Shown: positions 14,947 to 59,645 of the stretch, in pieces
How positions within the stretch are numbered: the first letter of the stretch is position 1
Layout of the letters: each line of letters starts with the position of its first letter
Assembly: GCA_022784465.1 (NCBI GenBank)
Contig: JALFUR010000010.1
Location: 186,001 to 250,000 of the forward strand
Source: Christensenella sp.
Lineage (GTDB): Bacteria > Bacillota > Clostridia > Christensenellales > UBA3700
Length of the DNA stretch: 64,000 bases
Direction of reading: 5' to 3'
The notes under the pieces: model-generated
What the model was told of the DNA's origin: nothing
What the model saw: only the letters and a program-made list of their open reading frames with translations
The model's database searches: none
Program-made: the position numbers and the translations under genes

Positions 14947-15029
14947 TCGAGAAGACCGATTTATTTAGGAGCTAACTATATAAGAGTCAAGTAGAATTAC
15001 AAAGAAATTTAAAAGTTAGCGAGAAAAAT

Positions 15030-15068
15030 AAAAAAGAGCGTGCAAACGCATAGAAGCAGGATGCTTCT
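15030..15068 (-). terminator. possible transposase terminator region
   Basis: In minus orientation a 7-bp hairpin (AGAAGCA/TGCTTCT, 15052-15068) is followed by a short GCGT/ACGC hairpin and a T-rich run. The second stem has only four pairs, so this is a weak call. Confidence 0.4.
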
Positions 15069-15094
15069 AAAAAGCACATTGAAAGTTGAATAAG

Positions 15095-16267
15095 TTAGAT
15101 AATAGGTTCTACGAAGTTAGAGTTCTTTTTTAGAACAGCGAAAATAATACGAACCATTTTCTTCATACCATGGGACACTGCAGTGTAGAAGTGTTTATCT
15201 TGGGCTCTTTTTCTATCAACATAGGAACGCATAAAGTTGGAAGTAACATAAGCAGATTTTGTTACTTGGTAAAGAGCATTTCTAAGATAAACAGAGCCCT
15301 TTTTGTCCATAGGAGTAATAGTAGCTTTGAATTTACCTGACTCATAGATTTGAGGAGCAAGCCCCGCAAAAGCTTGCAATTTTTCAGGATAATCGAAATT
15401 GTTAATGTCACCTATTTCCGCTAAGATAGTGGCACCCATAGTAACTCCAATACCTGGTATAGAAGTAATAGGAGAGTTAATTAGAGACATAATTTCTTTT
15501 AATTTAGATTCAATATCTTCTAATTCTTTAGATAAGAAGATAATTTGAGAACAGATATGTTTTAATTCGAAAATATCTCCATCTAAATTAGACCCAATAG
15601 AATGTTTAGCTGCATCGATCAAAGAATCTAATTTACGAACAAGTCTTCCATGAGAAATATTTTTTAAATGTTTTTCTAAAGAAGATCTTCTAGCTCCGCA
15701 AATACTAGAAGGTCCAGGAAACTTTTCTAAAAGTTCATAAGAGCTTAATAAAGAAACATTAAAGATTTTCTCAAACTCAGGGAATACAAGGTGTAGAATA
15801 CGTCTAAATCTATTCTTTAGAGGTTGAACAATTTTAATTAAACGGTAACGGTATCTTGTTAAAGACTTTAAAGACTGAATGTGGTAAGATATATCTAGGT
15901 AGGATGAAGAATCTTCTGTAATCATCTTCTCTGCAATATATCTTGCATCAGATTTATCAGTTTTAGTAGCTCGTAGTGTTAGAGACTTTCGAAATCTGTT
16001 CACACTCAACGGGTTTAACGCAAAAACCGGAAGGTTTTGTCGTTTTAAGTAATTAACAAGATTAGTAGAGTAATGACCAGTGGACTCTAGTCCTACTTTT
16101 ACATTAATTAGGTTTTCACCTACAGTTTGAGTTAACAAATCCATTAGAGAATTAAAGCCATCTAAAGAATTTTGGAACTGGAAATTGTCGCACAAGATTT
16201 CACCATTAGATGAAATAATGTGGCAATCATGTTTGTCTTTTGCGACATCAATACCAACATAGATCAT
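15095..16267 (-). CDS. IS110 family transposase (DEDD-Ser recombinase)
   Basis: 390-residue RNA-guided recombinase that catalyses excision to a circle and re-insertion. The start is the ATG at 16265-16267, with AAAGGAGG eight bases upstream; 15 extra in-frame codons before it lack a ribosome site. The RuvC-like domain has Asp7, Glu61, Asp104 and Asp107, the DEDD set, in GIDVAKDK, GLESTGHY and TDKSDARYIAE. The C-terminal Transposase_20 domain has SIPGIG and the catalytic Ser at about residue 325 in KKGSVYLRNAL. No stop or frameshift interrupts it, so it may be active. The non-coding region ahead of it carries the bridge RNA, as in the IS110 subgroup. Confidence 0.95.
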   Translation of the reverse strand: MIYVGIDVAKDKHDCHIISSNGEILCDNFQFQNSLDGFNSLMDLLTQTVGENLINVKVGLESTGHYSTNLVNYLKRQNLPVFALNPLSVNRFRKSLTLRATKTDKSDARYIAEKMITEDSSSYLDISYHIQSLKSLTRYRYRLIKIVQPLKNRFRRILHLVFPEFEKIFNVSLLSSYELLEKFPGPSSICGARRSSLEKHLKNISHGRLVRKLDSLIDAAKHSIGSNLDGDIFELKHICSQIIFLSKELEDIESKLKEIMSLINSPITSIPGIGVTMGATILAEIGDINNFDYPEKLQAFAGLAPQIYESGKFKATITPMDKKGSVYLRNALYQVTKSAYVTSNFMRSYVDRKRAQDKHFYTAVSHGMKKMVRIIFAVLKKNSNFVEPII

Positions 16268-16308
16268 ATGAAGGTCCTCCTTTAAAAATATTTGTTCTGT
16301 ATTTTGAA

Positions 16309-16539
16309 CCACAAGATCTATGCAATGTAACCTCGTTCTAAATAAAACGACAAAGCGTTATCTAACTAATCAACAAAGAAACATAGATTTGTGGCTATAT
16401 CCTCCTAAGAAACGACAAAGCGTTAAAAGCTAATGAACTAGACCACAGAACCTATGTTAATTATATATCTTTAGTTTTACACTTAGGGAACTCGCTTTTG
16501 AAAAAGCTATCCCTAAAACCTAAGCAAAACTAGATATAT
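16309..16539 (-). ncRNA. candidate IS110 bridge RNA
   Basis: Read on the minus strand, the region upstream of the transposase begins with a long stem-loop (16539-16463) with two internal loops. Two similar modules follow, each topped by the same hairpin AACG-CTTTGT-CGTT (16425-16411 and 16360-16346). This is the order 5' stem-loop, target-binding loop, donor-binding loop known for IS621-type bridge RNAs. Flanks of the second hairpin include TAGTTAG, identical to the last seven bases of the right end. Flanks of the first include TTAGGAG, complementary to the core plus right flank. Function is inferred from the family. Confidence 0.7.
16346..16425. repeat. two 15-bp direct repeats, each a hairpin, 65 bp apart
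   Basis: AACGACAAAGCGTTA occurs at 16346-16360 and 16411-16425. AACG and CGTT within each copy pair around a 6-base loop. They cap the two loops of the candidate bridge RNA. Confidence 0.9.
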
Positions 16540-16616
16540 CTAAAAAATTATAAATAATACATCTAACTTAGATTTTATGATCTAGTTAAATCCCAAATGT
16601 ATTATACGAGGAATCT

Positions 16617-17651
16617 ATGCAACACGAAGTAACCCAAAAACAAAAATTGCTTGATGAAAATGGAAACATCAAAGAACCAGGCTATGCTAAAACTCAAGTG
16701 TGGCAATATTCAAGAGAAGATATTAAAGCTCCAAAATGGAGAATTAAAGAATGGGATTATTATTATATAGGAAACCAAGAATATGGTTTATGTCTTACCA
16801 TATCTGACGCAGGATATGTTTCTTGTATTAGCGCATCGCTACTAGATTTTAAAAATAAAACTCAAATTAACAAAACTGGACTTGGGCTTTTCCCTCTTGG
16901 AAAAATGAAACTTCCTTCTACCCCAGAAATTGGAGATGTCTATGGAAAAGCTGGTAAAGTAGATTTCGCTTTTGAGTGCGACGGAAAGACAAAACATTTA
17001 ACAGGAGTTTTTCCTAAATTCTACGACAACAATGATCCTCTTGTTTTTGATATAACATTAGACAATATACCACAAGAACATATGGTAATTGCTACACCTT
17101 TTGAAAAGGATAAGCATTTTTATTATAATCAAAAAACAAATTGCATGAGAGCTAGTGGATATTTCACTATTAAAGGCGAGGAGTACAGATTAGAAAATAA
17201 AAATACTTTAGGAACTTTAGATTGGGGCCGTGGTGTTTGGACATACGACAACACTTGGTATTGGGGGTCTTTCCAAGGTGTTCTTGAAGATGGAAACATT
17301 TTAGGATGGAACATAGGTTATGGATTTGGAGACACCTCAGCTGCCTCTGAGAATATGTTGTTCTATAATGGCAAAGCGCATAAACTTGATGAAATATATT
17401 TTAATATTCCAAGAAAAAATGGCAAAGATGACTATCTTTCTCCTTGGACATTTACATCAAATGACAATAGATTCTATATGGATTTTACTCCGCTTATAGA
17501 TAGACAAGCGCCTCTAGATTTAGGATTTTTATGTATGATTCCTCATCAAGTCTTTGGATTATTTAATGGATATGTAATTCTTGACGATAACACAAAAGTG
17601 GAAGTTAAAAATCTAATGGGATTTGCTGAAAAAGTTCACAATAAATGGTAA
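16617..17651 (+). CDS. DUF2804 family protein
   Basis: 344-residue cytosolic protein of the uncharacterised DUF2804 family. It is recognised from the N-terminal LLDENGNIKEPGYAKT segment, the RIKEWDYYYIG stretch, the central TLDWGRGVWTYDNTWYWG motif and the C-terminal MIPHQVFGLFNGYVILDD motif. The sequence is beta-rich and aromatic-rich, compatible with the lipocalin-like/AttH-type fold proposed for such families, but no reaction is known. The start has GAGG five bases upstream. The IS110 element lies directly upstream and separates the gene from a strong promoter at 14918-14946. Confidence 0.85.
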   Translation: MQHEVTQKQKLLDENGNIKEPGYAKTQVWQYSREDIKAPKWRIKEWDYYYIGNQEYGLCLTISDAGYVSCISASLLDFKNKTQINKTGLGLFPLGKMKLPSTPEIGDVYGKAGKVDFAFECDGKTKHLTGVFPKFYDNNDPLVFDITLDNIPQEHMVIATPFEKDKHFYYNQKTNCMRASGYFTIKGEEYRLENKNTLGTLDWGRGVWTYDNTWYWGSFQGVLEDGNILGWNIGYGFGDTSAASENMLFYNGKAHKLDEIYFNIPRKNGKDDYLSPWTFTSNDNRFYMDFTPLIDRQAPLDLGFLCMIPHQVFGLFNGYVILDDNTKVEVKNLMGFAEKVHNKW

Positions 17652-59532: not shown

Positions 59533-59645
59533 AATATCCTTAAATAATACATTTAGATTTAACTTATAGTTAGCTGCATTATTTTTTTCTTTGTCATTAT
59601 ATCATAACGCTTTATTTAGTGTATAATTTGTTGCTGCAAAACAAC

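What the first reader, a model, noticed from the sequence alone, without database searches (positions are those of the whole stretch)
16309..16539. IS110 element with a readable bridge RNA: 5' stem-loop plus two loops capped by identical hairpins
Upstream of the transposase, the minus strand shows a long stem-loop with two internal loops (16539-16463). Two modules with the same hairpin AACG-CTTTGT-CGTT follow, 65 bases apart. This is the architecture of IS621-type bridge RNAs (5' stem-loop, target-binding loop, donor-binding loop). Identical caps on both loops would be an informative structural variant for this lineage.
Basis: partly seen in the sequence, partly recalled or inferred. Interest (0 to 1): 0.72.

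Follow-up and report, generated by a model that had tools for sequence, protein, structure and literature searches.

The report
Transposon guide RNA targeting ribosome-binding sites
This is the two-loop guide ("bridge") RNA of an IS110-type jumping gene; its guides can be read, they send the element into the ribosome-binding site just in front of host genes, and this RNA family seems to have a built-in choice between two competing folds.

Summary
On the minus strand there is a stable stem-loop (16463-16539, z -4.3) and two exact copies of AACGCTTTGTCGTT 65 bases apart (0 expected), upstream of an IS110 recombinase (15095-16267) with all catalytic residues. It is a bridge RNA. In 22 homologues the two-loop fold shows 20 of 30 pairs with compensatory changes. 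Its donor guides match the element's own ends (LDG 37/37, RDG 37/39), and target guides match their own insertion sites far better than other elements' sites (p<5e-5). A covariance model finds it in 53 of 391 genomes of the class, 18-31 nt upstream of the recombinase wherever positions were compared.

(1) The target is the Shine-Dalgarno sequence of host genes, entered antisense. Here the right guide UUAGG-AG reads TTAGG-AG. (2) The caps share one architecture in all relatives, unlike IS621; exact identity (2 of 22) is the end of a continuum. (3) One strand (16380-16394) is complementary both to the strand closing the target loop and to the strand closing the donor loop. Both pairings covary, so the RNA may be bistable.

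Weak points: the left target guide fits the window site poorly (2/7), and no transcript or activity is shown.

The parts
14970..16610 (-). IS110-family element, bounded by a CT core (AG on +) at each end: 16609-16610 (left) and 14970-14971 (right)
   Evidence: Shared ends of the window copy and of the repeat-broken contig ends C4, C9 (left) and C6, C7 (right) of the same genome; same ends in relatives
15095..16267 (-). IS110 recombinase, 390 aa; D7, E61, D104, D107 and S310 correspond to IS621 D11, E60, D102, D105, S241
   Evidence: PF01548 1e-38 and PF02371 9e-22; NF033542 IS110 RNA-guided transposase, above cut-off; alignment to IS621 8wt6
16463..16539 (-). 5' stem-loop
   Evidence: Fold z -4.3; same inner hairpin in order-level relatives with paired changes (AGGGA/UCCCU, CGGGG/CCCCG; read by eye)
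16460..16465 (-). Internal -10 box TATAAT, 13 nt before GTGG of the target-loop stem; 20 of 22 relatives have at least 5/6 matches 9-16 nt before it, about half with TGn
   Evidence: function inferred
16443..16458 (-). Segment 1 (AACAUAGGUUCUGUGG), 5' strand closing the target-binding loop
   Evidence: covariation with segment 2
16425..16434 (-). Left target guide AUUAGCUU plus core-facing UU
   Evidence: position by homology; matches the window's left target at 2 of 7 positions only
16411..16424 (-). Target-loop cap AACG-CUUUGU-CGUU
16402..16408 (-). Right target guide UUAGG-AG
   Evidence: 5/5 match to the right target TTAGG next to the core, against 1.6 for other elements' guides; TTAGG also at the 3' junctions C6 and C7
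16380..16394 (-). Segment 2 (CCACAAAUCUAUGUU), shared central strand: pairs with segment 1 or with segment 3
   Evidence: IS621 control
16362..16368 (-). Left donor guide UAGUUAG
   Evidence: equals right end TAGTTAG-CT of the element; 37/37 relatives match, 19.1 expected
16346..16359 (-). Donor-loop cap AACG-CUUUGU-CGUU
16332..16336 (-). Right donor guide ACGAG
   Evidence: complement of left end CT-CGT; 37/39 relatives match over 4 nt, 11.3 expected
16309..16322 (-). Segment 3 (CAUAGAUCUUGUGG), 3' strand closing the donor-binding loop
   Evidence: covariation with segment 2
14965..14971 (+). Right target plus core, TTAGG-AG: upstream part of the host Shine-Dalgarno sequence; the rest (GAATCTATG) is at 16611-16619
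   Evidence: sequence
16617..17651 (+). Host gene entered at its ribosome-binding site (DUF2804 protein), start codon 6 nt after the core
   Evidence: PF10974 5.7e-134
14985..14990 (-). TTGACT at the right end; with TATAAT of the left end (16601-16606) it would form a promoter with a 17-nt spacer across the joined ends of the circular form
   Evidence: sequence, direct reading; inferred by analogy with IS621
16552..16611 (+). Hairpin leader at the left end, read as new 5' leader by the host gene

Best explanation
Upstream of an IS110 recombinase the minus strand encodes the bridge RNA of the element: 5' stem-loop, target-binding loop (LTG 16425-16434, cap, RTG 16402-16408) and donor-binding loop (LDG 16362-16368, cap, RDG 16332-16336). 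Shown by sequence: the donor guides read the element's own two ends, and the right target guide UUAGG-AG reads the genomic site TTAGG-AG. That site is the Shine-Dalgarno sequence of the neighbouring gene, and the element lies antisense to the gene at a CT/AG core, so part of the SD and the start codon stay with the gene. The same targeting is found across relatives of about 33-46% recombinase identity. Inferred: two recombinase dimers, one on each loop, recombine circular element and target at the core as in IS621; the two similar caps are the common handle by which the same protein holds both loops; the RNA comes from the promoter formed in the circle and probably also from the conserved internal -10 box.
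For: Recombinase family and catalytic residues. Covariation of both loops, 20 of 30 pairs with double changes; named structure 82% paired, 69 double-change cells against 33.5 in shuffles, 0 of 500 shuffles as high. LDG equals left donor 37/37 against 19.1 expected; RDG complements the left end 37/39 against 11.3. Target guides: LT 5.2/7 own against 2.85 cross, RT 3.5/5 against 1.4, permutation p<5e-5. SD: 61 reconstructed sites pair with the anti-SD at mean -8.9 kcal/mol against -1.9 for random flanking 20-mers, p 1e-34; 36 of 55 insertions have an ORF start 3-15 nt downstream against 13.8% of random positions. Three left junctions in the window's genome lie directly before DUF2804, upp-like and nuoE-like genes, and in a same-genus genome before purM-like and other genes. 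Covariance model R2 finds the RNA in 53 of 391 genomes; compared by eye with recombinase positions, hits outside the training set (G138, G136, G266, G384, G393, G289, G434, G304, G243, G106, G406, G200, G313) lie 18-31 nt upstream. The donor loop of IS621 contacts RuvC and its target loop does not (PMC11208158).
Against: The left target guide of this copy matches its left target at only 2 of 7 positions, below the mean of other elements' guides; the core-facing bases of the LTG are UU, not CU. The target and donor loops do not fold significantly on their own. No transcript, binding or movement has been shown. The permutations do not correct for relatedness. Guide positions for the target test were set by hand on an alignment. 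Other copies in this genome are seen only as contig ends, with left and right junctions not paired.
Confidence: 0.9

Rival explanations
1. Bistable bridge RNA: segment 2 switches between segment 1 (target loop closed by a long stem) and segment 3 (donor loop closed by a long stem), so that one molecule offers mainly one loop at a time. This would fit the finding for IS621 that the two loops of one synaptic complex come from two RNA molecules. An extension of the best explanation, not its opposite.
For: Segment 1:2 own -18.4 against -12.6 kcal/mol cross-element, segment 2:3 own -16.3 against -11.0, shuffled -6.8; p<5e-5 for each; the competing halves 1a:2a and 2a:3a each covary (p<5e-5), whereas 1:3 does not (p 0.12). 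In this element both are -16.4 as cut. The IS621 control lacks it: -21.0 against -2.4, shuffled mean -4.7. Centroid of 16305-16456 takes the segment 2:3 pairing.
Against: The consensus fold has target stem (1b:2b) and donor stem (2a:3a) together, which are compatible; 1a:2a pairs are formed in only about 59% of aligned cells. Relatives fall into few independent classes of segment a. If transcription starts 7 nt after the internal -10 box, segment 1a is mostly absent from that transcript.
Confidence: 0.35
2. Insertion before genes is only what survives selection: the element avoids coding sequence and lands in promoters or leaders, and the SD match is incidental.
For: Insertions in genes are lost; 64% but not all of the sites have a recognised start codon at the right distance.
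Against: Base-level position at the SD, very strong anti-SD pairing of the empty sites, and guides that encode the SD-like letters and follow each element's own target.
Confidence: 0.07
3. The stem-loop and repeated hairpins are regulatory structures of the recombinase mRNA or a terminator or attenuator, not a guide RNA.
For: They lie directly upstream of the start codon; the IS110 ends were earlier thought to regulate the recombinase (PMC11208160).
Against: Guide letters covary with both ends and both target sides; no terminator-like site found on the minus strand here.
Confidence: 0.03

Closest known systems
IS621 bridge RNA and recombinase (IS110 group; PMC11208160, PMC11208158)
   Same: Recombinase family and active site, bridge RNA in the left end, 5' stem-loop, target then donor loop, LTG/RTG and LDG/RDG on either side of a cap, CT core, promoter across the joined ends
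   Different: Target is the Shine-Dalgarno sequence, not REP elements. Shared closing strand, absent in IS621. Internal -10 box before the target loop. Longer right target guide
IS110 members described with seekRNA, e.g. ISEc21 (PMC11187229)
   Same: IS110-type recombinase with the long non-coding region upstream of tnp that guides target choice
   Different: Different target; no report of Shine-Dalgarno targeting found in the held library
ISCro4 (PDB 9t56)
   Same: Solved IS110-family recombinase, second best sequence match
   Different: Its RNA and target were not compared here

Membership tests
IS110 family (recombinase) | RuvC-like DEDD domain PF01548 plus PF02371 | tested here: met
   1e-38 and 9.4e-22; NF033542, 215.8 bits against cut-off 140
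IS110 family (recombinase) | Catalytic D, E, D, D and Ser | tested here: met
   All five positions align with IS621 D11, E60, D102, D105, S241 (residue numbers read from that alignment)
IS110 family (element) | Short CT core at both ends | tested here: met
   CT at both junctions in all copies read
IS110 group bridge RNA | RNA encoded in the left, 5' end, not the right end (IS1111 group) | tested here: met
   Positions; model R2 hits 18-31 nt upstream of tnp where compared
IS110 group bridge RNA | 5' stem-loop, then two stem-loops with guide loops | tested here: met
IS110 group bridge RNA | Donor loop complementary to the element's own ends | tested here: met
IS110 group bridge RNA | Target loop complementary to both sides of the insertion site | tested here: met
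   Met for the lineage. For the window copy: right side 5/5, left side only 2/7
IS110 group bridge RNA | Transcript of about 150-250 nt bound by the recombinase | not testable with these tools
   No RNA data
Close IS621 type | Short target cap and longer donor cap with RuvC contact | tested here: not met
   Caps of equal size and the same letters; so it works like IS621 but is not of its close type

The most novel reading that the evidence does not exclude
A lineage of RNA-guided transposons that uses the ribosome-binding site as a genome-wide address, with a bridge RNA that switches between a target-reading and a donor-reading fold through one shared strand, and with matching caps that might permit recombination between two targets, which IS621 cannot do.
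Probability: 0.25. Interest if true: 0.85.

Novelty: new variant of a known kind. Interest (0 to 1): 0.64.

Why it matters
If correct, here is a natural family of bridge RNAs aimed at the one short motif that stands in front of most genes. It spreads into many places without breaking coding sequence and leaves the start codon and part of the ribosome-binding site with the gene. It gives several dozen naturally re-aimed guides with known targets, and a donor side that covaries, to test the rules of bridge RNA programming. The equal caps test the proposal that unequal caps prevent target-target recombination in IS621. The shared strand makes it testable whether one RNA molecule can present both loops at once.

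Tried and rejected
Rfam gathering search found only tRNAs in the window. Genome-contig scan with the recombinase gave one distant relative, viral contigs none; whole-genome search worked. First parse of segment 2 hit the donor cap in four elements, corrected; segment 3 is cut too short in two elements (L096, L152) and the 2b:3b line is invalid, so both are not used. First RDG count used a window that missed the guide, corrected. Left-end regex misplaced the end in L117-L120; these were dropped from the anti-SD test. DUF2804 leaders in same-genus genomes are too diverged to show the exact empty site, but have an SD there. The generic promoter scan does not report the internal box or a minus-strand terminator. 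The 1.1-kb-scale idea that the 60-bp left-end repeat was the target (a REP) was dropped: the element's guides do not read it and it lies inside the element.

Full report
Observation. The stated structures are present at the stated places. The 5' stem-loop (16463-16539, minus) is far more stable than shuffles. The 14-base hairpin occurs twice and nowhere else in the window, with none expected. The two loops themselves do not stand out in single-sequence folding (z -1.0), so homologues had to decide.

The element. The ORF 15095-16267 (minus, ATG at 16267) is an IS110 recombinase. The same genome holds further copies that broke its assembly: contigs C4 and C9 start inside the left end, C6 and C7 end inside the right end, and C15 carries an internally deleted copy. 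Comparing them puts the ends at CT cores: left GATTC-CT-CGTATAAT, right GTTAG-CT-CCTAAATAA (element orientation). Right targets are CCTAA at all three right junctions.

Homologues. Recombinase searches of 391 genomes of the class and 398 of the phylum gave about 75 relatives of mostly 33-46% identity, read with their flanks. An alignment of 22 non-identical RNAs gives an RNAalifold consensus with a target loop, a donor loop, a cap on each and a closing stem for each; 20 of 30 pairs have compensatory double changes. The named structure exceeds all 500 shuffles and every slid control. A covariance model built from it matches 53 of 391 genomes; the hits I compared with the recombinase positions, many of them outside the training set, lie 18-31 nt upstream of the recombinase.

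Guides. The left donor guide repeats the right end exactly in 37 of 37 elements, following its three versions AGTTAG, AGTTGG and AGCTGG. The right donor guide is the complement of the first four bases of the left end in 37 of 39, following CTCG, CTTG, CTTA, CTGG and CTAG. For 15 elements with hand-placed target guides, own targets match far better than other elements' targets. In the window copy the right guide UUAGG-AG is perfect, but the left guide is not (2/7). Either the right side suffices here, or the guide has drifted since insertion; this is unexplained.

Target. Read in gene direction, the empty sites are such as TTAGG-AG-GAATCTATG (window), GAA-AG-GAGATTTCTATG (L071), GTTT-AG-GAGGAAATATGG (L090): Shine-Dalgarno sequences. 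61 reconstructed sites pair with the anti-SD at mean -8.9 kcal/mol against -1.9 for random flanking sequence, and 56% still do so at -6 or better after insertion. 36 of 55 insertions have a start codon with an open frame 3-15 nt on, against 13.8% of random positions. In the window's genome and a same-genus genome the entered genes resemble upp, purM, guaB and a nuoE-type subunit (names from reading the translations, not searched), which suggests that insertion is tolerated. I found no report of this target in the held papers; subscription papers and preprints were not covered.

Caps. In IS621 the donor cap is longer and contacts RuvC while the target cap does not, which is given as the reason why target-target recombination fails (PMC11208158). 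In this lineage both caps have one design. In the window's clade the loop is CUUUGU or similar, ending in U; in the others C..GA. Two of 22 pairs are exactly identical, and 8 have identical stems where 4.0 are expected (p 0.006).

Shared strand. Segment 2 (16380-16394) follows the target loop and precedes the donor loop. It is complementary to segment 1 before the target loop and to segment 3 after the donor loop. Over 22 elements both pairings are stronger within than between elements (p<5e-5), whereas segments 1 and 3 do not pair above chance. IS621 lacks this. The consensus keeps the inner part of 1:2 together with the outer part of 2:3, which are compatible, so full exclusion is not proven. 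I give the switch reading about one in three.

Transcription. The joined ends would give TTGACT-17-TATAAT, as in the IS621 circle (sequence; for IS621). In addition, 20 of 22 elements have a -10 box with at least 5/6 matches 9-16 nt before the GTGG of the target stem. Whether the 5' stem-loop is part of the working RNA is therefore open.

Verdict. A genuine IS110-group bridge RNA, well supported, in a lineage with an unreported target and two structural differences from IS621.

Noticed in passing
window 16552-16611 (+); window 59538-59584 (-); G000 C7:3762, C13:368994, C11:290197, C11:298726: A 60-nt leader hairpin with paired changes sits inside the left end of the element and, without the element, directly before the SD of pfkA-like, ilvB-like, serS-like, SIS-domain and one further gene. 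Model R1 finds it convincingly only in the two same-genus genomes that carry the element.
   Followed up: partly
G002 C3:18-76 and C20:26751-26809: Two further copies of the same hairpin share an upstream sequence different from the IS left end, so a second repeated element may carry it.
   Followed up: no
L171 1601-1862 (NZ_CP151045.1): An E. coli IS621 copy whose bridge RNA region contains a partial duplication of its own 5' part joined within the target-loop cap, as if the element had used its own guide region.
   Followed up: no
L076-L078 (G210): Three copies lie in nearly identical left targets (TTTGCATCACACCCAC-CT) that their left guide matches at 7/7, with no ORF found downstream: this member seems aimed at a repeat.
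   Followed up: no
L027 / G046 C83 957-1061: In this relative the target-loop region is repeated several times before the complete bridge RNA, suggesting duplicated or decayed target loops.
   Followed up: no
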